The position numbers were made by a program, and so were the translations under genes. From positions 1-41,071 of IMG/VR virus record IMGVR_UViG_3300009129_000029: DNA of 41,071 nucleotides. The stretch is one strand, 5' to 3'. Numbering within the stretch: the first letter of the stretch is position 1; every line of letters begins with the position of its first letter. This DNA is from a virus. The notes under the pieces were generated by a model. It did no database searches. It was not told where the DNA came from and was given only the letters and a program-made list of their open reading frames with translations. Below, one piece after another: positions 21,519 through 41,071 of the stretch.

Positions 21519-24500
21519 TTACCCCAATAGTCTAAAGTTGTGGTGAATCGAGCGCGTGCTGAATCCCCACTTAGGATCGTAGTCCAGCTTCGCCATGTAC
21601 GGGCGATTAATCTGAACGTTGTCACCTCGCTCGGGCTTGACACCCCAGCACTTGATCTTGGTTGTCTTGTTAGACGAGTCGATGACTTCGACAATCCAAT
21701 AGATCTTACCGTGCTTAGTCTTGCGCGGAACGATCTTACGCGGAACGAACCATGCAACCTGCAGGTCAGGATCAAACTCGCCAAGCGGAGGGACGAACCT
21801 CTCTTCCAATCGTTGACGTACGCGCTCGCTGAGAACCAAGTCGAAGGGGAACACGCCGGTAAGGTCAACCTGATACTGGATCAGTTCTTCCTCGGTGAAC
21901 ACGCCCTCGTCAGCGTACGCTTCGATGTTCTCCAAGAACCGCTTCTTGTTCTTGGGTCGGTCTACTGCGACACAAGACCAGAAGTGCTTGAGTCCCGTGA
22001 ACCTCTCATCCATCAGACTGTTCAGAGCCTGACAACGAATAAGAACATCGAGTGCCTTCTTGTTCAACTTTGAATACGTGATGTTCTCGTTGAACAGAAA
22101 CTCCTCAACGTTATTAAATGGACGGTTGGCAATCACCTGTGCGATAGCTGCCTCGCCCAAGCCCTTGACCGAAGTGAGCGGCTGAATAAGCGTCTGCCCA
22201 TCCTCGCTGATTTCCCAGACCGTACCCGACTTGTTAATATCAAGCGGCGCAATCTCAAAACCATAGTTCTTAGCGACGTTGATTGCCTTTTCCTTTCGAG
22301 ACTCTGGCTCTTTGTCCAAGAAGGACGCCAGCCACTCGGCGGGATAGTAATTCATCAGCCACGCGCACTGAAACGAGAGGACCGAGTACGACACTGCATG
22401 TGACTTATTGAAGCCATAACCAGAAAAGTACTCAAAAGTATCCCACAATCTCTCAGCGTCTGCGAGCTTGATGCCCTTCTCTTGGCAACCTTCAACAAAC
22501 TTTTTATGAATAAGCGCTTTCTTATCATTCTTACCTGTTCCCTTCTTAGTAAGTAGCTTGCGAAGCAAGTTACCTTCATCAAGGGTCAAATCCTTGCCCA
22601 GCTTGTGAGCCAAGATCGCAATCTGCTCTTGGAAGATCAGGAACCCGTAAGTCTCCTGAGTGACCTCTTCCACGATTGGGTGAAGATACTTGACATACTG
22701 TGGAGCCTGCTTCGCCTCCACATAATCCTTATCAACACCGGCACTCAATGGACCGGGACGAAAGATGGAAGTGATGGCTGAGATATCAATAATACTCGAT
22801 GGCTTAGCGCGAACACAGAACTCTTGTGCTCCGTTCTCGGTGAACTGAAACACTCCTCCCCACTTGCCAGCATGAAAGACGTTTGTATACACGTCCTGAT
22901 CATCGAAGTCAATCGCGTCTGGGTGAAGGTTATTGTTGTAGAAGTCTCGTACCTGTTCAAAAGTCGGATCCTCAACGCCGTGGTGTCGCTGAAGAATATG
23001 ACGAATAGCGCCGTCGATCATTCTCAGGGTAGACAGCCCAAGGATATCAAATTTAATGAAACCCATGGGTTCAAGATGTCGAACGTTCTGCCCCTCTGAC
23101 CATGGCGTTTGCCGAACGCCGCCTGAATTAATCAGCGGCATGTACTGGTCAAGGTTCTCGGCAACCACGACGCCACCAGCGTGACGCGAGCAAGAGCGAG
23201 TCTGCCCATACAATGCGTTAACGTGTGTCTTGACGTGCGGATACTTGTTCAGGAATGCCTGCAAGGTTCCGCTAAACTCCATCACCTCTTCAAAGGTGGG
23301 CACATACACGCCCGCCTTGATGCCGTGGCGTTGCTTCGCTGGACCTGTAGCCTCAAACATCATCGTACTGGTAACTGCGTTCACCTCTGTAAACTCAATG
23401 CCATAAAACTTGGAAATATCTTTGATGAGCGACTTAAGTTGCAATGTATTCCAGTTAGAAATAGGAGCAACAGTATCCTCACCCCACTGTTCGATGAGTT
23501 CTTCCTTGAGCACCATCGGGTCAGACACATCGTAATCAATATCTGGATAGTCCGTGGCGTCAGAGCGCAGGAAACGCGAGAACAGTAGACCATACTTAAT
23601 AGGATCAATCTGTGTGATGCCCAAAGCGTATGCCACCAGCGAGCCTGCAGCCGAACCTCGACCGGGACCAGCTAGCATCTTCTCCGTAGCCTTGTCAGCG
23701 ATAGCCTTCATGGTCAGGAAATATTTGCTGAACCCTCTGTCATCAATGACCTGCAACTCTCGCTTGAGCCGATCACGATACTCTTCGTTGTCCACGAAGC
23801 CAAGGGTTTTCAGACCTTCCAGCGAATATTGAATCAGCGCTTCGGTCGCGGTATGTCCTGCTGGTACCACAAAGTCCGGTAGGCGAACGGTGTTGTCTGG
23901 AAAGAACGACTCAACCCTGTCATGAGCGATGTTATGCCCATTCTTAATCGAGCCAAGAACCAGATCATCATCATACTCAGCCCCAGCATCAGTAGAATAC
24001 TTCCGATACGACTCCCACATCTGATCGCCGTTCTTGGGGTATAGTTCATAGCCGATCTCCTCTACATCAATAGGTAGTTCGTTACTCTCATAGTCAGGCT
24101 TGGACTTGCCAAGCCAACCAAGTCGCTTATACAACTCGCGGTCCTTCCATGCGGTAGGGCTCGGGTAGTGACTGTCTGCCGTGGAGACTAGCTCAATACC
24201 AAACTCATGATGCATTTCAATGATGCACTGGTTCAGTTGGTGCTGCTCGGGAACATTGTTCCACTGCAACTCCCCATACCAGCGGTCACCAAAGATAGAC
24301 TGCATCCGGCGCGTGGTCGTACGCATACGTTCAAGGCACTCGTCCCTGTCGAATGTACGGTTGCCATCCTCGTCAGTCTCCCAGCTATGCCAGAAGTCTT
24401 GAGCGTATACGCCGCCCAAGCAAGCGGAGGATGCAATGATGCCCTCCGAATATTTCTCAAGCAGAGCATAGTCCATTCGCGGATAGCGATAGAAATTCTC

Positions 24501-24971
24501 AGGCTGATAGCTTTCGGAGATGAGTTTGAAAAGGTTATTAAGTCCTGTCTGGTTCTGTGCAACCAAGACAAGGTGAGCACGACGGCGAAGTACATCCTTC
24601 ACTGCCTTCTTGCTAGCATCCTCGTCCTCAATCGTAGTACCCGACTGAGACTCTGCCTTCTTGTTCTTTACCTTGGCTCTGGCTTCTTCATAGTCCGTTC
24701 GCCAGTCTTCGATGGAGGGAATGAAGTATGCTTCGACGCCGTAGATTGGCTTAAATTCTTTTCCCTCGGCTTGCATCTTCTTAGCATGAAGTACCTGATG
24801 GGCAAGCCCATTCATATTCCCATGGTCTGTCAGCGCCAAAGCAGTGCAGCCATTTTGATATGCAAAGTCCATGTGCTCTTGGGGGTACCCAATCGCATCG
24901 AAGATCGAACCTGCAACACTGTGAGCGTGTAGGTTTACGAACGGAATCTCGGAAGAAACGCGAGTTGTCAT
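21519..24971 (-). CDS. dnaE: Replicative DNA polymerase III alpha subunit
   Basis: The 1150-residue polymerase has an N-terminal PHP domain (NLHAHS at 13-18, TDHGNMNG at 48-55) and the C-family polymerase core. The metal-binding Asp residues are in PDIDYD at 476-481, and the third is in KFDILGLSTLR. Other family segments are GPGRGSAAGSLVAYALGIT, RHAGGVVVAE, IFQEQIAILA and FNKSHAVSYS. Length and order match a complete DnaE. It should copy the phage genome; no beta clamp, tau or exonuclease epsilon is visible here. A family A polymerase is also present at the window end. Confidence 0.95.
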   Translation of the reverse strand: MTTRVSSEIPFVNLHAHSVAGSIFDAIGYPQEHMDFAYQNGCTALALTDHGNMNGLAHQVLHAKKMQAEGKEFKPIYGVEAYFIPSIEDWRTDYEEARAKVKNKKAESQSGTTIEDEDASKKAVKDVLRRRAHLVLVAQNQTGLNNLFKLISESYQPENFYRYPRMDYALLEKYSEGIIASSACLGGVYAQDFWHSWETDEDGNRTFDRDECLERMRTTTRRMQSIFGDRWYGELQWNNVPEQHQLNQCIIEMHHEFGIELVSTADSHYPSPTAWKDRELYKRLGWLGKSKPDYESNELPIDVEEIGYELYPKNGDQMWESYRKYSTDAGAEYDDDLVLGSIKNGHNIAHDRVESFFPDNTVRLPDFVVPAGHTATEALIQYSLEGLKTLGFVDNEEYRDRLKRELQVIDDRGFSKYFLTMKAIADKATEKMLAGPGRGSAAGSLVAYALGITQIDPIKYGLLFSRFLRSDATDYPDIDYDVSDPMVLKEELIEQWGEDTVAPISNWNTLQLKSLIKDISKFYGIEFTEVNAVTSTMMFEATGPAKQRHGIKAGVYVPTFEEVMEFSGTLQAFLNKYPHVKTHVNALYGQTRSCSRHAGGVVVAENLDQYMPLINSGGVRQTPWSEGQNVRHLEPMGFIKFDILGLSTLRMIDGAIRHILQRHHGVEDPTFEQVRDFYNNNLHPDAIDFDDQDVYTNVFHAGKWGGVFQFTENGAQEFCVRAKPSSIIDISAITSIFRPGPLSAGVDKDYVEAKQAPQYVKYLHPIVEEVTQETYGFLIFQEQIAILAHKLGKDLTLDEGNLLRKLLTKKGTGKNDKKALIHKKFVEGCQEKGIKLADAERLWDTFEYFSGYGFNKSHAVSYSVLSFQCAWLMNYYPAEWLASFLDKEPESRKEKAINVAKNYGFEIAPLDINKSGTVWEISEDGQTLIQPLTSVKGLGEAAIAQVIANRPFNNVEEFLFNENITYSKLNKKALDVLIRCQALNSLMDERFTGLKHFWSCVAVDRPKNKKRFLENIEAYADEGVFTEEELIQYQVDLTGVFPFDLVLSERVRQRLEERFVPPLGEFDPDLQVAWFVPRKIVPRKTKHGKIYWIVEVIDSSNKTTKIKCWGVKPERGDNVQINRPYMAKLDYDPKWGFSTRSIHHNFRLLG

Positions 24972-27261: not shown

Positions 27262-29241
27262 CTAGATTGTGCAGGTGTCGTTGGTGCAGAACTTAGATCC
27301 AGCACCTTCGGTTTCGGTTTCGATACGCTCAATGGGCGTGATTTTGCTTGACATTTTCTCGTACTCTTCTTTCGTGATTGCTTCATATGGAGCCTGCTTA
27401 TATCCTGTTTCTTTATATGCTAAAAACGACACTGCTTTAAGTCGAGTTTCGTACATTTCTAGAGCACCCTTGAGTGACGAGGCTTCGTGAGGCTGAAAGG
27501 TTACTGTTACTGACACAGAGTTATCAGCCCAAAAGTGCTGATACTGTGCCGCAATCTCTAACTGCTCCCACATCGACACGTCCTTCTTGCTCTTCTCAAA
27601 GTACGGCTCTTGCACTGGAAACTCCACAACCGTAGTGTTGGGAGAGTATGCATCTGGTTCCATATTATACCCTGCTTTTCTCAAATGATCAAGTAAATCT
27701 GATGTGTTTGAGAAACGAATCCTGCGAAGATAGTATTCGGACTCGGGAAAATGGATGCCGGGGGTGGAACCATTGAGCAGTGAGACTGTGCCGCTGGGCT
27801 TGATACTGGTCATGCGCACGGAGCGGGGGATACAAAGCCAGTTTGAATACTCCTCGTCCAAGTCCTGCACACGATCATAAGCCTTATCGCACCAGTCATA
27901 AACCTCACGGCGACCGTGCTTGGCAAACGCCTGAACCACGCCAGACTGCGAGAGCCCAATACGTCGGTTCTTGAGCATAATTGCGTTCGTTTCTGGCCAA
28001 TGTGTGTTCACCAGCGTAACCGTCTTGCCGTACAAGTATGCGATCTTTAGTGTCTTAAGATAGTCTTCGTAGTTCTCATGTTTGGCTGGGTACGTTTCAA
28101 CCAGACAGCACAACTCAGCGTCTTCAAGCTGCTGCTCCACACAAGGGTTGAAGCCCATAACATGACGGTCATCATCGCGTGGCTCATCTTTGAAGCGACC
28201 ACGGGTACGGGCGTTGTTCAGCCAAATGTACCCCGGCTCTCCATTCTGCTGAGACTGTTCTGCGTGCCATGTATAATCCATGCCCACCATCGCCTCAAAC
28301 GAGTTATTCGATCCCCACCGGTGAGAGTAAAGTTTGTCTTGATCATTCTTCATCGACAAATACTCTTTGTCATCATGGGCGCCAAGGGCGAGAGCAGCAG
28401 ACCTACGAACATTGCCTGCGACAACACACTTGCCAATAAGATTCTCTGTATCCACAATGTCAACAGAAGTTACAGACTCGCCGATGCGAGTATCGTAAAG
28501 TTCCTTAAGGTTATTATGTAACAGCATCAGCGGCTCATGCCCAGCAGAGGTACCACCGAAACCCTTGATGGCGGCACCAAGAGGTCGAATAGCACTGTAG
28601 TCAAAGTGAGGCACGTCATTACCAAAGTAATAGCCGTCGAGGAGGATGCGCACTGAACGTACCCAGCCCTCACGACTGTCATCAATAACATAAACATCGT
28701 CAACAAAATTGGGCTGACTAATTGTAGCGGTGCCGGCACCCTTGGTGTCAAACCCAACGCCGATGCCGACCATCAATGCATCCATGATCCACGCAAACAG
28801 ATAGCCACCTTTGGTGCTAATGTCTTTGGTGGAGCGGAACGCGCAGTTAAACAAGCCTGCGCCAGTGCGCTCCTGCACAAACTTGGTGCCCATCATCCAC
28901 AGCCCACGACCGGGTGGCGACCACTTAAGAGTGAAGAGCCTATCATACGCATCCTTAGCGGTGCGCTGAGCCTTTGCATCATTCCACTCAAGCCCCAAGC
29001 GGGCAACGTGTTGTTTTTGAATGTCAAACATTCCCTCAATAACTCGGCGGCATGTCTGATGCCACTCTTCGGTACCGGGAGTGCCCGGTGAGGATTCTTC
29101 TAGTCGTCGCGAATACGTTCTCTTAAACGTCACGTATCCCAGCGGACCCCACGGCACTTGTCGATCTCTATAGTTATCAATAAAAGATTCTGACAGTCGA
29201 AATCGACGGACTGACGGATCTCTCTCGGTTTGTTCGTACAT
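27262..29241 (-). CDS. nrdJ: Adenosylcobalamin-dependent ribonucleotide reductase (class II)
   Basis: The 659-residue enzyme resembles the monomeric class II reductase (RTPR type). The opening PWGPLGYVTFKRTYSR is typical. The active-site Cys133 (NCAF), the thiyl Cys367 in NPCVE with Asn365 and Glu369, and Cys378 are spaced as in the family (11 residues between the last two). A C-terminal Cys pair (CTNDTC) can relay reductant. It makes deoxyribonucleotides from ribonucleotides using vitamin B12, so the host must supply B12. It is coupled to the helicase gene by TAATG. Confidence 0.95.
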   Translation of the reverse strand: MYEQTERDPSVRRFRLSESFIDNYRDRQVPWGPLGYVTFKRTYSRRLEESSPGTPGTEEWHQTCRRVIEGMFDIQKQHVARLGLEWNDAKAQRTAKDAYDRLFTLKWSPPGRGLWMMGTKFVQERTGAGLFNCAFRSTKDISTKGGYLFAWIMDALMVGIGVGFDTKGAGTATISQPNFVDDVYVIDDSREGWVRSVRILLDGYYFGNDVPHFDYSAIRPLGAAIKGFGGTSAGHEPLMLLHNNLKELYDTRIGESVTSVDIVDTENLIGKCVVAGNVRRSAALALGAHDDKEYLSMKNDQDKLYSHRWGSNNSFEAMVGMDYTWHAEQSQQNGEPGYIWLNNARTRGRFKDEPRDDDRHVMGFNPCVEQQLEDAELCCLVETYPAKHENYEDYLKTLKIAYLYGKTVTLVNTHWPETNAIMLKNRRIGLSQSGVVQAFAKHGRREVYDWCDKAYDRVQDLDEEYSNWLCIPRSVRMTSIKPSGTVSLLNGSTPGIHFPESEYYLRRIRFSNTSDLLDHLRKAGYNMEPDAYSPNTTVVEFPVQEPYFEKSKKDVSMWEQLEIAAQYQHFWADNSVSVTVTFQPHEASSLKGALEMYETRLKAVSFLAYKETGYKQAPYEAITKEEYEKMSSKITPIERIETETEGAGSKFCTNDTCTI

Positions 29242-30611
29242 TATGTTTGCTTACTCCTATTAGCCTTAAAGTTTTTGTATTTTTCTTTTAAATTCTCTGC
29301 TTGTTTCTTTGCAGAGTTTTCCATGATTTCACCGGGAGTCTCGCCAGTGGGCTGAAGAATCTTGATCTTTACAGACCCCGGATCCATAAATATCGGATAT
29401 ATGAGTCCATCGGGTCCGTTTCTATTCTTGGCGACGAATACTCGTCCAGTATTGTTGTTTTTGTCGTCAATGGTTCTGGAGACAGAGAAAATAAAGTCTG
29501 CCACAAAGCACTTATTGAACGCTTCGCTGATCGACTCCATTGTAATAACTTCTGCATTTAATCCTGACCTATTGGTTTGCGATGCTGTCCACACTGGACA
29601 CTTGTTTTCTTGTGCAATCGCCCGCAACTCTTCATAGATGGATTCAAGTTCATTTCTTTTCTCTTTTTGATAAGTAACAGGTCGCAAAAGATCCCCATAA
29701 TCGACAATGATCATATCCGGCGTGATATCTCGCTTCCGCAACTTCTCCAAGTGAGTTGTTAGTGTGCGGGTGCTTGCAGATTTGGTCGGATACTCCTTAA
29801 TAATTAGTCTGCCTTCTATATCCTGCACCGTCTCATATACTAATTCTTTCAATTGAAAAAGATCACCCAAAGGTACGCCCGTCAAGCACGAATCATAGCG
29901 ATTCCCAATAGCTGATTCAGCCAACTCCAAAGTGTAGTGAATAACTGTCTTGCCTTCCTTGACCGCCTGTGACCCTAAGTGTGTGAGAACCATAGACTTT
30001 CCAGCACCTGTGGGTGCGATGACCACTCCAAGTTCGCCGGCTCCAAGCCCGCCCTTCGTGAGAGAATCAATCTCATGCCAGCCAGTTGTGACCGCATTTC
30101 TTGTTTTAAGCTGGAACCTTGCTTCAAAATCTTTCACGTAATCATGACCAAAATTATTATCGCTCCCAAGCTTGAGAGCGTCATTGATCACCGCGCTAAT
30201 CTCATCGAACGAAGAAGTCTGCAACAGCTTGACAGACTCCATCATCGCTTCCTTGAGTTTCTGCTTCCTGCAGAAGTCAAGCGATATCTCTTTAATATAT
30301 TTCCGACCCTCGACCTCAGAATTACAAATGCGCGCAAAATAGCTGCGCACCTGTTGCTTGTCGGTGTCTGTCTCTCCCTCCAACTCGGAGCGGAGGAGCG
30401 TCATCATGATCTTGGTGGAAGGGTGTACGTTATACTTGTCGCGATACGCAAACACTTGCTTCACAAACGTGCGAAGATATGATAGCTCTAAAAAATTAGT
30501 ATCCAACACCTCATGAATCTGATCCGCAAACGGACGATCTTCAAGAATAAGTTGACACAATCCCTCTTGGAAGTTCTTTCCAAATTTACTGAAACTGGGT
30601 TGTTCTGACAT
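29241..30611 (-). CDS. DnaB-family replicative helicase
   Basis: The 456-residue RecA-fold ATPase has Walker A APTGAGKS at about 199-206 and Walker B MIIVDYGDLLRP. The region QTNRSGLN and the C-terminal NRNGPDG fit the DnaB/gp41/gp4 group. The N-terminal 160 residues are helical, as in DnaB. It should unwind the replication fork as a hexamer. AGAGGA precedes the ATG at 30611. A sigma-70 promoter overlapping the end of the exonuclease gene drives it. Confidence 0.9.
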   Translation of the reverse strand: MSEQPSFSKFGKNFQEGLCQLILEDRPFADQIHEVLDTNFLELSYLRTFVKQVFAYRDKYNVHPSTKIMMTLLRSELEGETDTDKQQVRSYFARICNSEVEGRKYIKEISLDFCRKQKLKEAMMESVKLLQTSSFDEISAVINDALKLGSDNNFGHDYVKDFEARFQLKTRNAVTTGWHEIDSLTKGGLGAGELGVVIAPTGAGKSMVLTHLGSQAVKEGKTVIHYTLELAESAIGNRYDSCLTGVPLGDLFQLKELVYETVQDIEGRLIIKEYPTKSASTRTLTTHLEKLRKRDITPDMIIVDYGDLLRPVTYQKEKRNELESIYEELRAIAQENKCPVWTASQTNRSGLNAEVITMESISEAFNKCFVADFIFSVSRTIDDKNNNTGRVFVAKNRNGPDGLIYPIFMDPGSVKIKILQPTGETPGEIMENSAKKQAENLKEKYKNFKANRSKQT

Positions 30612-30629: not shown

Positions 30630-30658
30630 ATTATACCGCGTTCGCTACTTGTTGTCAA
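30630..30658 (-). promoter_or_regulatory. Consensus sigma-70 promoter of the helicase operon
   Basis: TTGACA (30658-30653) lies in the last codons of the exonuclease gene, with a 17-base spacer and TATAAT (30635-30630), a perfect consensus match. The helicase ATG is 19 bases below the -10. The operon continues through the ribonucleotide reductase and the GroES-like gene. Confidence 0.85.
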
Positions 30659-31610
30659 CCACAATTCGCCTCATTGTTTGAAACAACGACGACCAGTCTC
30701 CTGCGCCAAAGCCGTCTTCAATCATCATACCCTGAACCGCTGTTTTGTTGAGGAGCATTTCTGCCTCTTCAATCGCAAACCTTACCTGCCTCTTGCCCTG
30801 TGGCGAGAGCGACGGAGCATATAGCTGCATCAGCTTATAGTTCTGTGCTATCACATCTTCGTTTTCAAGAATCGAAGTATAAACTTTCAGCTTCGACTCG
30901 GATAGTTGTGAACGGCAATGTTCCATAAGGTTATTAATCGTGCAGAACTCTTCGTCTGCAAAAAATTCAAAACGCTTCTTAATTGTGCCCAAGCCAACGC
31001 CGGTAACACCCGGCAAGTTGTCTGACTTGTCTCCCGCAATAGCGCGGGCGAGCGCCATGTTATTCGGGTGGATACTGTACTCGTCCACCAGCCGCTTAGT
31101 GTTCATGATCTGCTTCTGAATCGGTCGGAACACTACAGTGTTATTGTCGCACAACTGGAAGAAGTCTTTGTCGCTGGAAACGATTACCTTCTGCCAATCT
31201 GCAAAGTGGGGAAGCTTAGAAACGTAGGCGATCACGTCGTCTGCCTCCACTGCTGGAAGCATGGTCTGAGAGATTGGCAACTCGTTTAGGTACTCAATCA
31301 GGCGGGTCTGCTGCCACACCTTATTTTCCATTTCTTCATTCTCGGAGAGGTTTCGCACATCACGGTTCAGGCGGATAGGCTTGCGCCCTTCTTTGTAGCC
31401 CTTGTTAACAGACTTGCGCTTCTGCGAGCCGCCGGCACCATCCCACGCAATCACGATATGATCTGGCTTGGTTTCGCGGACCAGTTTCTGTAGGATCTTT
31501 AGAAAACCCTTGACCCCTCCGATTGGTTGACCATTAGTCGATAGACTAGGATCAACAATATATGCGCGGAAATACATGTTCAGCGCATCAATAATCAAAA
31601 CTCTTTTCAC
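30645..31610 (-). CDS. 5'-3' exonuclease / flap endonuclease
   Basis: The 321-residue protein belongs to the Pol I N-terminal/T5 D15 family. Acidic metal sites are in IDALNMYF, AWDGAGG, AVEADDVIAY and SSDKDFFQL, and the helix-hairpin-helix is in GDKSDNLPGVTGVGLGTI. It removes RNA primers and 5' flaps. It starts at GTG 31610, with AGGAG 13 bases upstream, just below the tRNA-Leu gene. Confidence 0.9.
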   Translation of the reverse strand: MKRVLIIDALNMYFRAYIVDPSLSTNGQPIGGVKGFLKILQKLVRETKPDHIVIAWDGAGGSQKRKSVNKGYKEGRKPIRLNRDVRNLSENEEMENKVWQQTRLIEYLNELPISQTMLPAVEADDVIAYVSKLPHFADWQKVIVSSDKDFFQLCDNNTVVFRPIQKQIMNTKRLVDEYSIHPNNMALARAIAGDKSDNLPGVTGVGLGTIKKRFEFFADEEFCTINNLMEHCRSQLSESKLKVYTSILENEDVIAQNYKLMQLYAPSLSPQGKRQVRFAIEEAEMLLNKTAVQGMMIEDGFGAGDWSSLFQTMRRIVVDNK

Positions 31611-31633: not shown

Positions 31634-31719
31634 TGGTAGGACTGGCGGGACTCGAACCCGCATGACCTAGGGTCGAGAGATTTTAAGTCTCTTGTGTCTA
31701 CCAATTCCACCACAGTCCC
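31634..31719 (-). tRNA. tRNA-Leu (anticodon UAA)
   Basis: The minus-strand transcript starts GGGACTG and ends CAGTCCT-A-CCA, a full acceptor stem with encoded CCA. The anticodon stem-loop AGAGA-CTTAAAA-TCTCT carries UAA, and a long variable arm (CGACCCTAGGTC) and the T-loop GGGTTCGAGTCCC follow, as in type II leucine tRNAs. It lies between a terminator and the exonuclease gene. Confidence 0.95.
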
Positions 31720-32157: not shown

Positions 32158-32186
32158 GTTAGACGTATGAGATCAGTTTTTATTCA
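32158..32186 (-). promoter_or_regulatory. Putative promoter element, copy 2 of 2
   Basis: TGAATAAAA and ATACGTCTAAC, 9 bases apart, repeat the layout found at 105-134. The first block overlaps the recA stop codon, so part of the likeness could be coincidence. The exported-protein ATG is 30 bases downstream. Treated as a promoter by inference. Confidence 0.5.
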
Positions 32187-33316
32187 TCCTTTTCTTCATT
32201 TTCTTCATAGAAGTCTGCAGCCTCGCCGATCCGCTTATCGAACTTCATGATGACTTCATCATCCATGATCTCCATAACGGTCTTGCGAAACTCTGGATCT
32301 TGTAGACGCTCGGTCCACTTGGAAGCTTGAAACTTTGTGCCGACAGGCTCGCCCTCTTTGTCAAGCAGCGAAAACCATGCGCCAGAACGGGCGAGTCGTG
32401 ACGAGCCGTGAATAGCATCAAACCAACTCTCCTCATCTTGGACACCGATGGCGTCACCCCAGAGGATCTTAAAGTTGCACTGGCGACCTTGGGTACCGAA
32501 GCGGGACTTCTCCAGCTTGACCTTGACCTCGGAGCCAATGCGGAAACCCTTGTCATCTGTGATGAAGCTTGCCTTAGCCTTGCGACCGGTCAGCCAGATG
32601 CGTAGCGAGTACGCATAGATCATAGCCTTGCCGCCGGGAGTCATGTACGGAGTCGTCATAGCCTCAGACGGAGAGCGCGTGATGTTGGTCTTAAGCTGGT
32701 TAAGAACAAGGAACGTGCATTGCGAGTTGGCGATAGGCACAGTCAGCTTGGACATACCCTTCGCCAGAATACGAGCCTTCACTGCCATAGACGACAGCGG
32801 GTTGAAGTCTCCCTCAACATCTGAGACAGATGGAGTGAGAGCAAGTGAGTCCCACACGAACAGCATGCGGTTGTCATTCGATCCCAACAGTTCTTCGATA
32901 GTCTCTAGAACAAACTCAACTGAGGTTGCCTGCACATACAAAAGGTTATTAAGATCGCAGCCTGCACGCTCAAGGAATGTTGGGTCAATAGCAGACTCGC
33001 TATCAAAATAGATAACGTCGATGCCCATCTTCTGGGCGTTGGCGGCTACCTGTGCTGCCATGTAGCTCTTGCCGGTGGCTTCAAGACCAGCGATCTCGAC
33101 CACCTTGCCGACAGGGATGCCAGCCAGCCGCCCACGGCAAGTAATAGAGTCAAGCCAGCGGGAGCCGGTGGGGATCCAGTCCTTCACCTCCGTTGGGTTC
33201 TCTTCGTTAAGATCGTGCGCTACGTTCTGACCAGCCTTCTTGTTGATCAGATCGCGCATTTGTGTGATGGAAAGCTTGCCAGCCCCATTGGATTTCTTAG
33301 TTCGTGCCATTCTCAA
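32180..33316 (-). CDS. recA: RecA/UvsX-type recombinase
   Basis: The protein (378 residues from TTG 33316, 376 from ATG 33310) has Walker A GLEATGKS at about 77-84, the DSESAID segment and Walker B LFVWDSLA. It should form filaments on ssDNA, promoting recombination and repair and possibly recombination-dependent replication. The C-terminus is acidic. The TTG has AGGAG at the ideal 6-base spacing, whereas the ATG is 12 bases away, so the TTG is favoured. It has its own promoter upstream. Confidence 0.92.
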   Translation of the reverse strand: MRMARTKKSNGAGKLSITQMRDLINKKAGQNVAHDLNEENPTEVKDWIPTGSRWLDSITCRGRLAGIPVGKVVEIAGLEATGKSYMAAQVAANAQKMGIDVIYFDSESAIDPTFLERAGCDLNNLLYVQATSVEFVLETIEELLGSNDNRMLFVWDSLALTPSVSDVEGDFNPLSSMAVKARILAKGMSKLTVPIANSQCTFLVLNQLKTNITRSPSEAMTTPYMTPGGKAMIYAYSLRIWLTGRKAKASFITDDKGFRIGSEVKVKLEKSRFGTQGRQCNFKILWGDAIGVQDEESWFDAIHGSSRLARSGAWFSLLDKEGEPVGTKFQASKWTERLQDPEFRKTVMEIMDDEVIMKFDKRIGEAADFYEENEEKDE

Positions 33317-33381: not shown

Positions 33382-34491
33382 TTAAATCCACTGGTGGACT
33401 TTTCTGCCACCAGCGGGATAGATTGTGGCACGCAAATGCTTAATACCAAAGTTATTGCGTGCGGTGGCATATCTGGTCACTAGAGCCGGCTTATATGATT
33501 CGTCAAAATCAATAGCTGAATCCAAGCGAGCCATCATATGGTGAGCCGACAAAGTATATGCTACTTCGGGTTCGTTGTCATCTTTGGTGGCTTCTGCCCC
33601 TTCTGTTTCAAGCGTGAAAAGCCCTTGAGCCACCAAGTCACAGTTGTTAGGGGCGCCCGGTCCCGTGGGGCTATAGTCTTGCCCAAAAATGCTCATGTAT
33701 TGCAAGGCTCTATCAGAAATAATTCTGCCGATACTAAGCCCCGGTGGGTACAGTTTTCTGCCGTCTGGTGCGATCTGTAGGTGTGGCTCCAAGTCAGCAA
33801 TAAAACTTTTTACCTCGGGGTGGTTATAAATCTTCTCGCCAGCCTTGATACTCAGTCCTGACCACTGACCGAAACTTTTGGCACTGCTGCCGTCTTTGTG
33901 GGAAATATAAACTGGTGGCTTTCCATCTTTCCTGATAAGCTGAAAATCGCTTTTGGGATCTACGCCTCCGACCTTTACCGTATCTTCTATACCTATAATG
34001 TCATCATATCTTGCAACCTCTTTCCCCGACGAGTTCAGAACCTTAATAATGATCGCATCAGTGTTGGCTGCAGCAAGCGCCTTGCTTATGAGATCGGATA
34101 GCTGACCTCTTGCGGCAATCTCTTTCTTAACGTAGAAGTCTGTCCCTTTGCCGCCAAACTCAGCAGTCTTCAGCAGTTTGCCAATCGGCAGAGTGCGACC
34201 ATCGGTCGTACGAAGAGCGAAATTGCGACCCAACATCTGCCTTGCGACGGCTGCTGAAATCTCTCCCGAAGAGAGCATCTTCTTTAGTGCAGCAATAATC
34301 TCTTCGTCTCTTTCAAAAGTCACCTGCGAGCCATCAACTGCGTCGAAAGGCTCTCCGTTTTCCAACTTTTCAATAAAGCGAGCCATACGCTGTTGAGATT
34401 TCGCCAACTGGGAGAAGCTTAAAGTTGCCTCTGTGACAATCTCTTCTTTAAGGTAGTCGCGCCAGCCTTCCATGATTGGTTGCATTATCAT
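33382..34491 (-). CDS. Unidentified 369-residue protein with virion-type leader
   Basis: The start MIMQPIMEGWRDYLKEE fits the shared W-x-x-F/Y-L-x-E leader. A later part, PKSDFQLIRKDGKPPVYISHKDG, has an Asp and a K-D spaced like a PD-(D/E)xK nuclease core, and the segment SAKSFGQWSGLSIKAGEK follows. A nuclease or DNA-binding virion protein is conceivable, but I cannot show it. The ATG at 34491 is coupled by TAATG to the methylase gene. A 51-base gap with the recA promoter follows it. Confidence 0.65.
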   Translation of the reverse strand: MIMQPIMEGWRDYLKEEIVTEATLSFSQLAKSQQRMARFIEKLENGEPFDAVDGSQVTFERDEEIIAALKKMLSSGEISAAVARQMLGRNFALRTTDGRTLPIGKLLKTAEFGGKGTDFYVKKEIAARGQLSDLISKALAAANTDAIIIKVLNSSGKEVARYDDIIGIEDTVKVGGVDPKSDFQLIRKDGKPPVYISHKDGSSAKSFGQWSGLSIKAGEKIYNHPEVKSFIADLEPHLQIAPDGRKLYPPGLSIGRIISDRALQYMSIFGQDYSPTGPGAPNNCDLVAQGLFTLETEGAEATKDDNEPEVAYTLSAHHMMARLDSAIDFDESYKPALVTRYATARNNFGIKHLRATIYPAGGRKVHQWI

Positions 34492-35336
34492 TACCCTATA
34501 ATTAGTATCTCGGACGAGGATCCCATCGTTTTTTTACCGACGCATTTGCCATCGACCCACTCGACATTCTTCATGCCGTATGCCCACTCAGCAGTGACGA
34601 TCTTGCGGTTAGAATATAGATCGCGTACCTCTGGACAATCATTGTATGACATGACCCAATCGGATCTGTCGGAAAGCAAGTTATAAAGCGCCATATGGTC
34701 AAAACCCGTGTGGAGCCCCCCTGCTTGCCCGTAGAGCATCGCTGCGTCTTCAGGCAGCATGTAGGGCGGGTCAAGGTACAGGAAGGCTCTAGGGTGCCAT
34801 GGGAGGCTCGTCTGGAAGTCTGCGTAGTCTACCCTGAAATTCTCGGCGTTAAACTTACGCAATCGGTCGATGGATGACTGAGTGAATCGAGCGTATGATG
34901 CTCGCTTGGACCAGCCACCAGAAAAGGTAGCCCCTGAGAAGCTAGACCTATTGATCGCGTAAAACTTTGCAGCCTTATCGTACGAGAACATGAACGATGG
35001 ATCTCGTAGCTGTTCCCGAAAGTTAATAAAATCTTCTTTGGAGCATCCCTCTACAAGTTTAGTAATGCCCTTCTCTTCAATCTCATACTCCGTGCGCAAG
35101 GCAGCGACCTCATCAGCCAGCCTGTCATTGTCGCCACAGAGCGCTTGCCAGAACCACACAAGGGGCACCAACTTGTCATATCCAATGACTTCGGTGCCCC
35201 TTGATGCTACTGCTAACTCCACCGAACCGCCACCAAAAAACGGTGAGCATAGACGCGAAATATCCTCCGGTATGTATGGGAGGATATGCTTAACTGCCCG
35301 TGACTTACCGCCGGGGTAGCGCAATGGAGTCTTCAT
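34491..35336 (-). CDS. D12-class DNA adenine methyltransferase
   Basis: The 281-residue enzyme has the Dam-type start TPLRYPGGKSRAVKHILPYI, the cofactor motif PFFGGGSVELAVASRG, and the catalytic DPPY in LYLDPPYMLPEDA. The class (T4 Dam, DpnM) methylates adenine N6 in DNA. It starts 3 bases after the histone H1-like gene with no good ribosome site. Together with the other phage Dam it suggests extensive adenine methylation of phage DNA. Confidence 0.92.
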   Translation of the reverse strand: MKTPLRYPGGKSRAVKHILPYIPEDISRLCSPFFGGGSVELAVASRGTEVIGYDKLVPLVWFWQALCGDNDRLADEVAALRTEYEIEEKGITKLVEGCSKEDFINFREQLRDPSFMFSYDKAAKFYAINRSSFSGATFSGGWSKRASYARFTQSSIDRLRKFNAENFRVDYADFQTSLPWHPRAFLYLDPPYMLPEDAAMLYGQAGGLHTGFDHMALYNLLSDRSDWVMSYNDCPEVRDLYSNRKIVTAEWAYGMKNVEWVDGKCVGKKTMGSSSEILIIG

Positions 35337-35535: not shown

Positions 35536-35612
<77 letters not shown>

Positions 35613-35661: not shown

Positions 35662-36435
35662 TTATGCCCCCATCAACTCGTCAAAGGCGGCGTCAACCGG
35701 ATCTGTCGTAGCGGTCGTCGCGGTATACTTCTCAGTTTCAGAAGAAGAAGTTTCAGCACTTTGATCCCCTGACAAGTACTCATCGAGCATAGCGGACACA
35801 TCAGATGTAGTCTTACGCTCAAAGAGTCCGTCGAAGTCAGGAATGTTGTCTAGAAGTTCTGCACACCGCTCGTCACCTCCAACTGCTTCATCACATAGTG
35901 GCGAAGAGCGACGACGAGGGGTCAGCTTCGTTTGGGGGAAAGAAGCGCCCGAAGGCTTACCATAGGTAAGAACCAAATCGGTGCCACTTTGAGGATCGGT
36001 GATATCACCGTACTCAGGGTTAAGAACCAGCCCAAGCAAGGACTCGTAAGCCATCTTGCCATAGCCCCAAGCGCGAACGCCTGATTCTTCCTCGCCTCGG
36101 ACGAGAACAGGGCTGAAGAAACGCTGACGGGCGAACAGCCCCTTAGCCATCTTCTTAGCCTCGTTGTCATCGTTTGCTACACCCTCCTTCCAGAGTTGTG
36201 ATGCAAACTCGCAAACGGGACATTCATCGCCGAAGTTGCGCTTAGGACAAAGGAAGCCACGGTTCTGTCCCACGTTATAGTGGAAGTGGAACTCGCGGAA
36301 GGGGTCGCCATCTTCGGTGGGCACAATACGAATTGCTTGCTCACCGTCGTTGGGACGCCAGAACTTGTTGTCGCCGGAATCTTTATTTTGGAGAGCATCC
36401 AGCTTGGCTCTCATTTTTGACAGGTCAATTGCCAT
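35662..36435 (-). CDS. T4 gp32-like ssDNA-binding protein
   Basis: The 257-residue protein has the gp32 zinc site: His50 in REFHFHYN, Cys63, Cys72 and Cys75 (CPKRNFGDECPVC), with H-x12-C-x8-C-x2-C close to the T4 spacing. The first 20 residues are basic and could mediate cooperative binding; the C-terminus is acidic and ends DAAFDELMGA, which in this family binds partner proteins. It should coat ssDNA in replication and recombination with the RecA and helicase encoded nearby. AGAGG precedes the ATG at 36435, and a promoter and a leader hairpin lie upstream. Confidence 0.88.
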   Translation of the reverse strand: MAIDLSKMRAKLDALQNKDSGDNKFWRPNDGEQAIRIVPTEDGDPFREFHFHYNVGQNRGFLCPKRNFGDECPVCEFASQLWKEGVANDDNEAKKMAKGLFARQRFFSPVLVRGEEESGVRAWGYGKMAYESLLGLVLNPEYGDITDPQSGTDLVLTYGKPSGASFPQTKLTPRRRSSPLCDEAVGGDERCAELLDNIPDFDGLFERKTTSDVSAMLDEYLSGDQSAETSSSETEKYTATTATTDPVDAAFDELMGA

Positions 36436-36525: not shown

Positions 36526-36789
36526 TTATTTTGAACTTTCTTCAAAGGGGTTATCAACCTCGATTTCGGTCACGTTACCTTCCACTGTTTTCCAATTAAA
36601 CATGCGGAATGCATTTGTGTCCAAGTCCCAAACAAGTTCCAAGCCCTCAGACAAGGTGGACTTTCGACCAGTACCCTTAATCTGAGAAGCGATAAACTTC
36701 TCGGGAATATCTGTAATACGGACAAAGCGCATTGTTCGCGCATCTCCGTTCTTCTTCGTGAATGTACCATTATAGGCTTTCATCAACAT
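36526..36789 (-). CDS. DUF2693-like phage protein
   Basis: The 87-residue protein reads MLMKAYNGTFTKKNGDARTM, RFVRITDIPEKFIASQIKGT and a third block LVWDLDTNAFRMFNWKTVEG, which fits the short phage family DUF2693. That family has no known function. AGGAGG precedes the ATG at 36789, which shares a base with the stop of the FtsZ-like gene (TGATG). The second ATG two codons on is also possible. Confidence 0.75.
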   Translation of the reverse strand: MLMKAYNGTFTKKNGDARTMRFVRITDIPEKFIASQIKGTGRKSTLSEGLELVWDLDTNAFRMFNWKTVEGNVTEIEVDNPFEESSK

Positions 36790-37631
36790 CAGACCTCCTG
36801 TTCTTGTATCTCTGATGAATTGGCTATTAGATAGCCATAGTTGTTGTCATAGTCAGTAGAGTGAATCCGTACCGAAACGATAGTTTCATCACTTACCATG
36901 TTCGCGCTACGTTCGCGCAAAGTCGTGAAAAGATCTCCGTCTGTTTCCAGTTGTTCTTTATTGATAGCATAAATATAACATCTTTCGTTGATGGTGTCAA
37001 GAGGGAAAAACAACTTTTCTTCATTTTTTTCAATATCGACCAATCCGAACGTTGAAACGCGGGCTGTTGCCAGCGAGGTTGACGGAGTGTTATAGACCGT
37101 CTTGGTATTCAGGAAAACGTTAGTCATGTGAACCGTCCCGGCGATCAATTCATTCAGACGTTTATAGTACCCGATCACTGGAACGTTTTCAAGTATTCTT
37201 TCTATCTCTTTGTTATCGATCATGTAAAGCCTCTCAAACACTCCACTTCTTGCATACTGCTGCAACACATTTCTTACCACACGTTCGTGAAGACGGGATT
37301 CGTTGTTGAGCAAGTTGCGATCAGGCTTAATATAGAGGATGCTCACCTTGCACTTCTGCAGCTTCTCCAGAATGCGCAGCGATACGCCGGATACTCGACC
37401 TGCGCCGCAAACAACGAACAGCACCTCCGAGTCCTTGGTCAGACCCCTAAAGAATGAACGAAAGTTCAAAGGGATCGTTTCGTATTCTTCAACGTTGCCA
37501 ACTTCTGGCAATAAAAAATTTCCTTTTTCCTTCGGCAGTTCCACGTCAAGTTTATAAATCTTATACTGTGGAAACTGGGCGAATTCATCTGCGATGTTAC
37601 AGCCCGCAGCGCCTAAGCCAATGATGTTCAC
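36789..37631 (-). CDS. FtsZ/tubulin-like protein with degenerate GTP loops
   Basis: The 280-residue protein follows the FtsZ/tubulin nucleotide domain: an opening NIIGLGAAGCNIADEF (FtsZ has GVGGGGGNAV), LDV near residue 30, and a second strand-loop-helix EVLFVVCGAGRVSGVSLRIL in place of GGGTGTG. KVSILYIKPD, an ERLYMIDNKEIERIL segment and a helix NELIAGTVHMTNVF follow in the right order. The GTP signature is changed and no catalytic Asp loop is evident after the last helix, so it may not hydrolyse GTP. It starts at GTG 37631 with GAGGTGA upstream. Possible roles are a filament former, an inhibitor of host FtsZ, or an unrelated nucleotide-binding protein. Confidence 0.6.
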   Translation of the reverse strand: MNIIGLGAAGCNIADEFAQFPQYKIYKLDVELPKEKGNFLLPEVGNVEEYETIPLNFRSFFRGLTKDSEVLFVVCGAGRVSGVSLRILEKLQKCKVSILYIKPDRNLLNNESRLHERVVRNVLQQYARSGVFERLYMIDNKEIERILENVPVIGYYKRLNELIAGTVHMTNVFLNTKTVYNTPSTSLATARVSTFGLVDIEKNEEKLFFPLDTINERCYIYAINKEQLETDGDLFTTLRERSANMVSDETIVSVRIHSTDYDNNYGYLIANSSEIQEQEV

Positions 37632-37639
37632 ATGTCACC

Positions 37640-40015
37640 TCAACTATATAAAAAGTTTTTCCAGTTCTTAACGATGGACTCATTAGTAACGTCTCTTGGC
37701 GGCTCTTCGGTTCTGTCGTCGGTGGTCTGGACGTGCTCGCCCACCACCTGATTGAACACAATCTGCACTCTTGCTGCCAACTCGTCTTCGTCATCGTTAT
37801 GTTCAATCGTGACTTTCATAGCTTCAATCTGCTCTTCGCTGCTATTGTCATTGACCGCAAGCACTATGTAGAGCCTAATTATGGGGGAACCAGAGGTCGT
37901 GCGAAGCTCTGACACCTTTGTAATCATATTTGGATAATGCCTGTCATCACCCGGTGTGCCCTCTTCTGCCCATGCATGCTCCACCAATGCCTTGCGTAAG
38001 GGAACGCTAAACTCTCTGCTCATTAGAATCGTCTTAACGTCTTCGGGCGACATGTTATCGGGGTAGTCTGGGTATGCCCATACCGTAGCCTCGACACCGT
38101 AGTATTCCATGTGGTCTGCTTCTTCGGCTGTAATATCCCACTCGTATGCGGTAAACTCGCCATTGTCTACTTCAGCGCCAAAGTTGTTGAGAGCGCCGCC
38201 TTCCATGTATCCGTCGCGCTTTGCCATGCGAGACAACTCGCCCTTGACAGCATCATACATGTCGTCAACCTCGTTAACCCTAAAGCAAACATTCTCAAAC
38301 GAATCGGCGTTGTAGGTATAGCCCTCGCCACCGGTGATATAGTCCTGTTCCAGTTGTATATCCAGCGCAATCGTATCATTAGAGAAGCGGTAAAGGCGAG
38401 TGCCCCACGAAGAATCATCCATAAATCCCCATTCAAAATCGCGCAACTCATCAGCCCAATGTTCGACAACCCGGCGGCTGTCAGGAAGCTGGTTCCAATC
38501 GTCAGCGTCCCATTTAACAGTCATCTTGGCATCTACTTCTACATAATAGCCTTCGCCGCCGTCGTATGTGACCTCTCCATCAATCACACATGCTTGGTAT
38601 CGATTAGTCCAGTCCATAGCAAGGTCATTGACTCTTTCTTGCTCTGCTGCCATGGTTGACTCAAGGAAATCCATTTCTGGCAGCGAGTTTTCTGTCGCTG
38701 TGTTTTGTCCGACTCTTTCAAGACTGATTCCTGTCAGGTCGTGGATGAGTCCCTTGATATTATTATCCTCGTAAGATCCGCCAAACTTAATCCACGCGGC
38801 ATCTTCCGGCGCAGATGCAATAGTTTGTGCCTGACTCTCTTTAGCCCACTCTGCAACCCTTTTTTGAAAACCGGGGATCTTAGAGCCATACACGCGCTTT
38901 TCAGGAATGGCGACTTCAGTGCCGTCATCAAAACCCTGCATGCCGGTGGGATCGGGTGGGTACCATCGCACTTGACGCAGACGGACGCGGGAAAGCGGAA
39001 CAAAACTCATGGTAAGTCCAATGTGACTGCCGCGAATATCGTCGGCAAAAATCTCTTCGCCGGTATTAATCGCATCTTCGGCAATTTCAAGGTTATCTGT
39101 TTCTGTGGCATTCAGCAGTTCTTCTGTCCTGACCACATATGCGACTGCGCCGTGACCGTGAGCCTCTGCGACTGCGCATTTGAAATATCCTTCTGAATGT
39201 TGTTCGCGGGACGGTGGCGAATGACATGATGTGATTCGCTGGAAATCAGACATGCGGAGAATGTCTACAGGATCGCGTGTAATTATAATACTGTATCTGT
39301 CGCTGTACAGCTTGTCCATGTTCTTCTTAATATATTCGGCATTGTCCTTCCAGAAGTTTGCCATCTTCTGAGCGTCAGCCATCAGCTCTTCATGTCCCGA
39401 ATGCCATAGACCGGGATTGGGAATATACAGCGACATCTGCTTATGCAGCCGCTCCCACGATTCCATCTGCTCTGCGTTGAGAGCATCTGCAGCCTCATTG
39501 CCAGTGACGTTGCCGGGGTGACGGAGAGTGCGATCTGCCTTTTTCTGGATAATGGCAAGTAGCTCATTCTGCCTATGTGCAACATCTGCAATTTTCCCAA
39601 AGAGTTTACCGATTTTCATCTGAATCTTCTTCTTTCTCTTCTCAGGGCGGGCGCCAGTGATTGCAGCCATGATATCGTCTGTGGCAGACTTCGTTGACAC
39701 CTCTCTTTCAGCGTAAACCATGCCCTTTTCCCAATCTACCGTAAATCCTTGGTCTTGGAGTGTTTTCGCAAACTTGCCCAAATCGCTTGTGTCGTCAAAT
39801 GCTTGGAAATCGATGATAAGGCGCGTTTTACCTTCAAATAGGTCGTTGAACGCCATATCCTCCGGTTCCATCGAATCGATAGCATCTTGGATATATGAAT
39901 GCTCGTCTTCGTCGAGTTCTCGGAGCAATTTGCTCTCTGTGTACATTCTTGGCTTTTTAGCCGGTTTTCTGGCTTCAGTCAAAAAACTGCGCCAGCCGTA
40001 TTCGTCGTAATTCAT
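37640..40015 (-). CDS. Large virion-like protein, paralog of 1944-5729
   Basis: The 791-residue protein starts MNYDEYGWRSFLTEARKPAK, the clearest example of the shared leader (W-x-x-F-L-x-E-A). It shares with the 1261-residue protein the blocks AFNDLF near residue 55, RDPVDILRMSD, SCHSPP, YFKCAVAEAHGHGAVAY, SRVRLRQVRW and YGSKIPGF, in the same order. The second half is acidic with many aromatic residues. No catalytic motif is evident. By analogy with T4 Alt and internal proteins it may be packaged and injected. The ACTATTTAT motif is 17 bases before the ATG, supporting late expression. Confidence 0.75.
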   Translation of the reverse strand: MNYDEYGWRSFLTEARKPAKKPRMYTESKLLRELDEDEHSYIQDAIDSMEPEDMAFNDLFEGKTRLIIDFQAFDDTSDLGKFAKTLQDQGFTVDWEKGMVYAEREVSTKSATDDIMAAITGARPEKRKKKIQMKIGKLFGKIADVAHRQNELLAIIQKKADRTLRHPGNVTGNEAADALNAEQMESWERLHKQMSLYIPNPGLWHSGHEELMADAQKMANFWKDNAEYIKKNMDKLYSDRYSIIITRDPVDILRMSDFQRITSCHSPPSREQHSEGYFKCAVAEAHGHGAVAYVVRTEELLNATETDNLEIAEDAINTGEEIFADDIRGSHIGLTMSFVPLSRVRLRQVRWYPPDPTGMQGFDDGTEVAIPEKRVYGSKIPGFQKRVAEWAKESQAQTIASAPEDAAWIKFGGSYEDNNIKGLIHDLTGISLERVGQNTATENSLPEMDFLESTMAAEQERVNDLAMDWTNRYQACVIDGEVTYDGGEGYYVEVDAKMTVKWDADDWNQLPDSRRVVEHWADELRDFEWGFMDDSSWGTRLYRFSNDTIALDIQLEQDYITGGEGYTYNADSFENVCFRVNEVDDMYDAVKGELSRMAKRDGYMEGGALNNFGAEVDNGEFTAYEWDITAEEADHMEYYGVEATVWAYPDYPDNMSPEDVKTILMSREFSVPLRKALVEHAWAEEGTPGDDRHYPNMITKVSELRTTSGSPIIRLYIVLAVNDNSSEEQIEAMKVTIEHNDDEDELAARVQIVFNQVVGEHVQTTDDRTEEPPRDVTNESIVKNWKNFLYS

Positions 40016-40116: not shown

Positions 40117-41071
40117 TCACAGGTTTAATGCCTTCATTGTACCAAAGTCTCGTCCCGCTTGGACGTTAACTTTGAAGTGGCCAAGTTCGTTCTGGCCAAA
40201 AAGGTTAATAAGTTCTGGTATCAATCCTCGGTCTTCATTAGAGAGGTCGATGACGACTGAATCATGTAAGGTGAATGCAACTCTTGACTTAAGATCTCTG
40301 AGACGTTCGCTGATTTGGATGAGCCTCCTAAGCACAACGTCCACGCAACTACTTTGAATAATGTAACTGAGAGAATGATGATGGTCGCTAGGAATGGTCC
40401 GTCCGAATCGTGTGTGGACATGTGTGCCGGTCCAATGCTCGCCAACAATTCTCTCTCTTCCGTACGTCTCTTCCAATAGTTTTCCCACAGTCTCATCACT
40501 ATTACCTAGTGAGCCAGTCATGTTTTTGCCACCGTACAGCCAGCCGAAGATTCTACGCTTCGCTTCTTGACGGTCCATGGAGCCGAAGATGTTGTCCATA
40601 TTCCACTGGTGTATGTCATCCTGTGGCTGGTCCTGCCCAGCTAGTGCCATGGCAACTCGCAACTCTGCAGCGTTGTAGTCCAACTCCAGAAACCAGTCAT
40701 TATTGGGCTTCAATATAGAACGATACTGCTTGTCCAGCGTAAGGACCGGAAATGTGCCGGGCATGTTAGTCAGACGACCGGTCTTCGTACCCCACACGTT
40801 ATACTTGCAGTACGGAGAATACTTCTGAATCTTTTTTAGAAACTTTCGTGTATCCGTCCTATGGTAGATATCCCTTATGCCGTCCATGGATATGTTTAGC
40901 TTCTGATATCGAATGTCGTCCAGCGCCTCTACCAGTTGTCTAGTAAAGTCGTAGTTTGTGGGGCGCTCGTAGGTGTCGAAGACGTGCTGGGTAATGCTGT
41001 TGCGGACCTCGCAATAGTCGAGCAGAAACCGCTCTGGCACCAAGTCAAAGAAGCAGTTCTCGGTCAAGGGA
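40117..41071 (-). CDS. polA: C-terminal part of a family A DNA polymerase
   Basis: The 3' 317 codons of a Pol I-type polymerase run from the window edge to the stop at 40117. Motif A is LELDYNAAELRVAMALAG (catalytic Asp plus the conserved Glu), motif B is AKRRIFGWLYGG, and motif C is TLHDSVV. Motif C has HDS in place of the usual HDE. The 3'-5' exonuclease domain, if any, lies beyond the window. It could fill gaps together with the D15-type exonuclease, while DnaE copies the genome, or the reverse. The true start is not visible. Confidence 0.9.
   Translation of the reverse strand, partial: PLTENCFFDLVPERFLLDYCEVRNSITQHVFDTYERPTNYDFTRQLVEALDDIRYQKLNISMDGIRDIYHRTDTRKFLKKIQKYSPYCKYNVWGTKTGRLTNMPGTFPVLTLDKQYRSILKPNNDWFLELDYNAAELRVAMALAGQDQPQDDIHQWNMDNIFGSMDRQEAKRRIFGWLYGGKNMTGSLGNSDETVGKLLEETYGRERIVGEHWTGTHVHTRFGRTIPSDHHHSLSYIIQSSCVDVVLRRLIQISERLRDLKSRVAFTLHDSVVIDLSNEDRGLIPELINLFGQNELGHFKVNVQAGRDFGTMKALNL

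What the first reader, a model, noticed from the sequence alone, without database searches (positions are those of the whole stretch)
36789..37631. FtsZ/tubulin-superfamily-like protein with altered GTP loops
Order and spacing of strands, the Gly-rich start and the ERLYMIDNKEIERIL region suggest FtsZ/tubulin ancestry, but the GGGTGTG signature and T7 catalytic loop are not conserved. It differs from a canonical PhuZ or TubZ and could be a non-hydrolysing filament or an inhibitor of host division.
Basis: inference. Interest (0 to 1): 0.6.

Follow-up and report, generated by a model that had tools for sequence, protein, structure and literature searches.

The report
Phage tubulin lacking its catalytic loop
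A gene found next to the DNA polymerase in hundreds of uncultivated bacterial viruses encodes a protein with the shape of the cell-skeleton proteins FtsZ and tubulin, but without the part those proteins use to burn their GTP fuel, so these viruses appear to carry a cytoskeleton-like protein tied to copying their DNA.

Summary
The 280-aa ORF at 36789-37631 (minus strand) is real and under strong purifying selection. AlphaFold2 models of it (pLDDT 94) and of a distant relative (pLDDT 91) both match FtsZ, TubZ and tubulin: all 50 best PDB hits, E about 1e-9 to 1e-11. No Pfam, PHROG or cultured-phage record recognises the protein itself. A profile of 120 members matches a PhuZ profile above every shuffled control. 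The nucleotide side is partly kept (T1 glycines, T2 Asp, T6 Asn, H7 Asn). The T4 signature GGGTG[ST]G is degenerate, and the catalytic T7 NxDxxD is missing in 120 of 120 sequences; helix H8 is missing from both models. At least 547 IMG/VR stretches encode relatives. The gene sits between DNA polymerase A (usually overlapping its end) and a gp32-like SSB, ahead of UvsX, a 5'-3' exonuclease and DnaB. In an SSB-anchored sample 66 of 74 loci showed it; the other eight are cut too short to exclude it. All six 167-193 kb records have one copy, a T4-type gp23 capsid and GroEL. My reading: a guanine-nucleotide-binding, non-hydrolysing tubulin-superfamily protein working with phage replication. New variant of a known kind.

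The parts
36789..37631 (-). Gene Z: 280-aa T7-less tubulin-superfamily protein (GTG start)
37596..37622 (-). T1-like Gly-rich loop, residues 4-12 IGLGAAGCN; G5, G7 and residue 10 (G/A) kept in 119 of 119
   Evidence: aligned to PhuZ T1
37545..37547 (-). T2-like Asp29 (104 of 120), aligned to the PhuZ Asp of YIDTS; same place as SaFtsZ D46
   Evidence: role of D46 from PMC8936486
37386..37409 (-). Degenerate T4 loop, residues 75-82 CGAGRVSG (family: [GCS]G[SA]GxISG)
37242..37262 (-). Family-specific motif QxYARSG (residues 124-130); R128 and S129 invariant in 120 of 120; role unknown
37209..37220 (-). T6-like loop IDNK (138-141); N140 in 114 of 120, aligned to the Asn of FtsZ PND
37110..37169 (-). 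Core helix H7 (155-174); N160 (N or D in 115 of 120) at or next to the guanine-contacting position
37059..37109 (-). T7/H8-equivalent segment (175-191): short, no NxDxxD, no helix H8 in either model
37014..37037 (-). Acidic beta-hairpin DIEKNEEK (199-206), where FtsZ has helix H9
40117..41070 (-). DNA polymerase family A (runs off the window end), upstream in the cassette
37640..40015 (-). 791-aa ORF of unknown function between polA and Z; cluster found in 16 of 92 loci, the window's close relatives
36526..36789 (-). 87-aa Sm/SH3-like (WYL_2, phrog_1086) small protein overlapping the end of Z by 1 nt; homologue in 29 loci
35662..36435 (-). gp32-like single-strand DNA-binding protein
32180..33316 (-). 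UvsX-like recombinase
30645..31610 (-). 5'-3' exonuclease
29241..30611 (-). DnaB-like replicative helicase

Best explanation
Z is a new, T7-less branch of the FtsZ/tubulin superfamily, a core gene of the replication cassette of a large clade of T4-type (gp23) uncultivated phages. SHOWN by computation: the two-domain tubulin-type fold, the conserved guanine side, the loss of T7/H8, and its coupling to polA and SSB. INFERRED: it binds GTP or GDP through T1/T2/T6/H7 but cannot supply the trans-acting catalytic loop to a neighbour, so it does not run the FtsZ/PhuZ hydrolysis cycle; it acts as a nucleotide-gated or nucleotide-stabilised scaffold or adaptor made together with the DNA polymerase, organising or positioning the phage replication complex. 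My confidence is about 0.95 that it belongs to the superfamily, 0.85 that it lacks FtsZ-type trans-hydrolysis, 0.4 for the replication-scaffold role; the figure given is for the whole statement.
For: Fold: (two models from largely different alignments; top 50 PDB hits all FtsZ/TubZ/tubulin). Sequence: profile-profile Z vs 10 PhuZ score 40.9, E 6e-5, against a maximum of 24.4 in 60 column shuffles; PhuZ vs FtsZ control 51.0. Motifs. T7 role: the T7 aspartates act on the nucleotide of the adjacent subunit, and N208L, D210N, D213N impair filaments (PMC8936486). Cassette: upstream neighbour polA in 50 loci, gap mostly -4 or -13 nt, same strand; 66 of 74 SSB-anchored loci carry Z, and in the three Z-less loci with 1.4 kb or more upstream no polA is visible either, so they are uninformative. 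One copy in each of 18 records.
Against: Synteny shows co-expression, not participation in replication. Related cassettes in cultured phages (Microcystis phage Mel-JY01, Flavobacterium phage immuto) replicate without Z. Nucleotide binding is inferred from a handful of residues; the T4 loop is degenerate and T1 Asn is kept in only 66 of 120. No coordinates were available to inspect the pocket or a dimer.
Confidence: 0.4

Rival explanations
1. Host-division inhibitor: Z is a dominant-negative FtsZ mimic. Its nucleotide (top) face docks on the T7 (bottom) face of host FtsZ, but having no T7/H8 face of its own it accepts no further subunit and caps the filament.
For: Exactly one of the two longitudinal faces is lost. 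FtsZ bottom-face mutants are toxic to division, and MciZ is a known FtsZ inhibitor used to argue filament polarity (PMC8936486).
Against: Takeover inhibitors tend to be small, variable accessory genes (general knowledge); Z is a fixed core gene inside the replication cassette. The T4 loop on the presumed docking face is itself changed.
Confidence: 0.2
2. PhuZ-like dynamic filament that centres or moves phage DNA or capsids, with hydrolysis supplied by different residues (for example the acidic DIEKNEEK hairpin or invariant R128).
For: Closest profile match is PhuZ; GroEL co-occurs (16 of 19 records), as reported for tubulin-encoding jumbo phages (PMC7824862).
Against: All 10 PhuZ sequences keep a D/E/N..D..N/D T7-type motif while Z has NxDxxD in 0 of 120; no TubZ_C_2 C-terminal domain; no multi-subunit RNA polymerase in the six big records, unlike nucleus-forming jumbo phages.
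Confidence: 0.15
3. Nucleotide-free adaptor: the tubulin fold survives only as a protein-binding platform for a replication protein, with no nucleotide at all.
For: Degenerate T4; the most conserved block is the family-specific QxYARSG, not a known nucleotide motif.
Against: T1 glycines, T2 Asp, T6 Asn and H7 Asn are kept together in most sequences.
Confidence: 0.2
4. Not tubulin-related: a Rossmann-like enzyme or regulator (for example TrkA_N-like, the weak Pfam hit).
For: PF02254 TrkA_N at E 0.066 for the window protein and 0.0097 at best among relatives.
Against: The TrkA_N hit covers about 40 residues below cut-off; fold search puts tubulins first throughout.
Confidence: 0.03

Closest known systems
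PhuZ, phage tubulin of phiKZ-like jumbo phages (Pfam TubZ_C_2)
   Same: Phage-encoded, single copy, tubulin-superfamily fold; best profile match through T1-S2-T2 to T4; GroEL often in the same genome.
   Different: Z is shorter (265-290 aa against 312-344), has no TubZ_C_2 domain or C-terminal tail, no T7 catalytic motif, sits in a polA-SSB cassette, and its phages show no multi-subunit RNA polymerase.
FtsZ (Pfam PF00091 + PF12327)
   Same: Order of N-terminal nucleotide domain, H7 and C-terminal domain in the model; T6 Asn aligned.
   Different: No Pfam match, no GGGTGTG, no T7/H8; H9 replaced by an acidic hairpin; 10-14% identity in structural alignments.
TubZ (plasmid and phage partition tubulins)
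   Same: Best single PDB hit by E-value for the window model (4ei7_B, 8.5e-12); mobile-element origin.
   Different: TubZ is about 400 aa with long C-terminal helices. Partner genes tubR/tubC were not looked for here and no TubZ sequence was compared.
FtsZl1 / FtsZl2 (Makarova and Koonin 2010, PMC2875224)
   Same: Divergent FtsZ-tubulin families; in FtsZl1 the T6-H7 elements could not be identified and non-standard or no filaments were proposed.
   Different: FtsZl proteins are cellular and, as described, keep the GGGTG(S/T)G motif; Z keeps T6/H7 and loses T4/T7, and is viral.
FtsZ inhibitors that act at filament ends (for example MciZ)
   Same: One-sided blocking of the FtsZ interface is what a T7-less mimic could do.
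   Different: Those are small unrelated proteins, not tubulin folds; analogy of action only, untested.

Membership tests
FtsZ/tubulin superfamily (fold) | Two-domain tubulin fold: nucleotide domain, core helix H7, C-terminal domain | tested here: met
   TMq 0.61-0.74, all top 50 hits tubulin superfamily
FtsZ/tubulin superfamily (fold) | Sequence homology detectable above chance | tested here: met
   Z vs PhuZ profile score 40.9 against a shuffled maximum of 24.4; Z vs FtsZ 26.4 against 23.7, weak. One Z sequence matches the start of PF00091 at E 0.015
FtsZ/tubulin superfamily (fold) | T4 signature GGGTG[ST]G | tested here: not met
   0 of 120; degenerate GxGxxSG form
FtsZ/tubulin superfamily (fold) | Guanine contacts in T6 and H7 | tested here: met
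   N140 114/120, N160 N/D 115/120; register
FtsZ/tubulin superfamily (fold) | T7 synergy loop NxDxxD/E | tested here: not met
   0 of 120; H8 absent from both models
FtsZ/tubulin superfamily (fold) | GTP binding, GTPase activity, polymerisation | not testable with these tools
   Needs purified protein
FtsZ | Pfam PF00091 and PF12327 | tested here: not met
   No match in the window; 13 of 14 control genomes ring
PhuZ | TubZ_C_2 C-terminal domain (PF22334) | tested here: not met
   Absent from the six big records; phiKZ gp39 positive at 1.7e-37
PhuZ | T7 acidic motif | tested here: not met
   Pattern present in all 10 PhuZ, NxDxxD in 0 of 120 Z
PhuZ | Genome of a nucleus-forming phage (chimallin, multi-subunit RNAP) | tested here: inconclusive
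   No Rpb1-type subunit in six records; a single-sequence chimallin search was empty but has little power
TubZ | tubR gene and tubC centromere repeats next to tubZ | not tested
   No such search was made

The most novel reading that the evidence does not exclude
A tubulin-superfamily protein that has shed its GTPase-activating loop is a fixed component of the replication machinery of a large clade of T4-type phages, used as a nucleotide-gated scaffold rather than a treadmilling filament: a second, nucleus-independent use of tubulin by phages.
Probability: 0.3. Interest if true: 0.85.

Novelty: new variant of a known kind. Interest (0 to 1): 0.64.

Why it matters
Known phage tubulins (PhuZ, TubZ) are hydrolysing cytomotive filaments. 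Here is a family in hundreds of uncultivated virus contigs, missed by Pfam, PHROGs and by searches of about 50,000 phage records, that keeps the fold and the guanine side but loses the catalytic loop throughout, and is coupled to the viral DNA polymerase. If it works in replication, it would show the tubulin fold used as a static or switch-like scaffold in prokaryotic viruses, and would allow a direct test of what a tubulin does without T7. It also gives a good marker gene for the clade.

Tried and rejected
Sequence-only searches (Pfam, PHROGs, PDB with single sequence and profile) gave only weak unrelated hits (TrkA_N, ubiquilin), rejected after the fold search. tblastn with three family members found nothing in 50,697 phage records; a pattern scan of 84,980 bacterial and archaeal genomes found no relative, though that scan is limited to two short patterns. 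FtsZ hits in 'phage' records: the one annotated example has ftsA-ftsZ-lpxC, so it is probably mislabelled host DNA; some of these were used only as FtsZ sequences. The 428-aa ORF at the same junction in Mel-JY01 was suspected to be a homologue but is an SAM-lyase-like protein. hhalign with only 11 FtsZ sequences was borderline (P 0.026; 12 unrelated families scored lower) and was improved by adding PhuZ. Chimallin search had too little power. A literature search found no description of this family, but only open-licence papers are held. TubZ sequences were not fetched because the standard sources are toxin-bearing plasmids or phages.

Full report
OBSERVATION. It evolves as a protein: dN/dS about 0.08-0.13 against relatives at 71-90% amino-acid identity.

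RELATIVES. A first scan of IMG/VR gave 23 loci at 38-100% identity. No relative was found by tblastn in 50,697 phage records with three different family members, nor by a pattern scan of one genome per species for 84,980 prokaryote species. The family is therefore viral and, as far as these collections show, uncultivated. Sample habitats are not shown by the tools; I believe many are aquatic, but that is from memory and unverified.

FOLD. AlphaFold2 with a 62-row alignment of window and locus proteins gave pLDDT 93.8, pTM 0.92. Foldseek against the PDB: best hit Bacillus cereus TubZ (E 8.5e-12), and all 50 listed hits are TubZ, FtsZ or tubulin, TMq 0.62-0.73, 9-15% identity, aligned over the whole protein. 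Against predicted viral structures the only two strong, full-length hits are proteins named FtsZ / cell division protein of uncultured Caudovirales and a Myoviridae sp.. A second model, of the distant relative L268 with its own 31-row alignment (pLDDT 90.8), again gave only FtsZ/TubZ/tubulin among the top 50, best E 8e-11, TMq to 0.74.

SEQUENCE SUPPORT. Pfam and PHROGs do not recognise the protein; phiKZ PhuZ used as control is recognised. A profile of 120 sequences aligned to a profile of 10 PhuZ proteins scores 40.9 (E 6e-5), in register from T1 through T4; 60 column-shuffled profiles reached at most 24.4; PhuZ against FtsZ, as a positive control, scores 51.0. Against a small FtsZ set the score is 26.4 (shuffled maximum 23.7), in register through T4, T5, T6 and H7. 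One family member matches the start of PF00091 itself, at its T1 loop, at E 0.015.

ANATOMY. Kept: G5, G7 and G/A10 of T1 (119 of 119), T2 Asp29 (104 of 120), T5 Pro103 (106), T6 Asn140 (114), H7 Asn/Asp160 (115). Changed: T4 is [GCS]G[SA]GxISG-like, canonical in 0 of 120. Lost: NxDxxD/E in the T7-equivalent segment, 0 of 120, while all 10 PhuZ proteins keep a T7-type acidic motif; in both models the chain goes from H7 to the next long strand through about 17 residues with no helix H8. New: an acidic hairpin (DIEKNEEK) in place of H9, and an invariant QxYARS block. The mapping of single residues to FtsZ positions rests on profile alignments and element order, not on superposed coordinates; N160 may be one place off the FtsZ Asp in H7.

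SURROUNDINGS. Clustering the ORFs of 92 loci gives one conserved order: structural genes, polA, Z, (small Sm/SH3-like protein), gp32-like SSB, UvsX, 5'-3' exonuclease, DnaB. polA is the immediate upstream neighbour in 50 loci, mostly overlapping Z by 4 or 13 nt, which suggests translational coupling; the small partner mostly overlaps Z by 1-4 nt. To avoid sampling only Z-carriers I searched with the SSB instead: 66 of 74 new loci have Z upstream on the same strand; five are cut within 1.2 kb, and three have 1.4-1.7 kb upstream but show neither Z nor polA. Whole-record searches: one Z in each of 18 records; all six records of 167-193 kb have a T4-type gp23 capsid protein and a GroEL; GroEL in 16 of 19 records overall. 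The window itself is a 41-kb virus record, with GroEL but, being a fragment, no gp23. The same cassette without Z exists in Microcystis phage Mel-JY01, Flavobacterium phage immuto and an uncultured 484-kb phage, so Z is a clade-specific addition to an older replication cassette.

MECHANISM. In FtsZ, T7 Asn and Asp residues act on the nucleotide of the next subunit, and N208L, D210N and D213N impair filament formation (PMC8936486). A family-wide absence of T7 and H8 therefore predicts no FtsZ-type hydrolysis and a changed or absent bottom interface. With the guanine side mostly kept and the gene coupled to the polymerase in a fixed cassette, I favour a non-hydrolysing, nucleotide-binding scaffold or adaptor in replication (0.4 for the whole statement). 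A capper of host FtsZ (0.2), a nucleotide-free adaptor (0.2) and a PhuZ-like filament with other catalytic residues (0.15) remain open. None of these was tested experimentally.

KNOWN OR NEW. It belongs to the FtsZ/tubulin superfamily by fold, but it is not FtsZ (no PF00091/PF12327), not PhuZ (no TubZ_C_2, no T7), and differs from FtsZl1/FtsZl2, which are cellular and keep T4 (PMC2875224). The open-licence literature searched held no description of it. I rate it a new variant of a known kind.

Noticed in passing
window 10673-12253 (-): Phage GroEL (phrog_5725, E 4e-140); GroEL is present in 16 of 19 records of this group, including all six of 167-193 kb.
   Followed up: partly
window 21519-24971 (-): A second DNA polymerase, 1150 aa (phrog_405, E 2e-226), in the same record as the polA-type polymerase of the Z cassette.
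   Followed up: no
window 37640-40015 (-): 791-aa ORF with no confident family match, inserted between polA and Z in the window's close relatives only (cluster in 16 of 92 loci).
   Followed up: partly
window 36526-36789 (-): 87-aa Sm/SH3-like protein (WYL_2 below cut-off, phrog_1086) overlapping the end of Z by 1 nt; present in 29 of 92 loci.
   Followed up: partly
window 15234-15896 and 20905-21516 (-): Two separate proteins that match both head maturation protease and ATP-dependent protease (ClpP-like) families.
   Followed up: no
window 34491-35336 and 35536-35612 (-): D12-class adenine methyltransferase and a tRNA-Met lie between the SSB and UvsX genes; a tRNA-Leu lies at 31634-31719.
   Followed up: no
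L180:5598-6881: In Microcystis phage Mel-JY01 an ORF just upstream of the SSB, annotated hypothetical, matches the S-adenosylmethionine lyase family (PF23780, E 4e-10).
   Followed up: no
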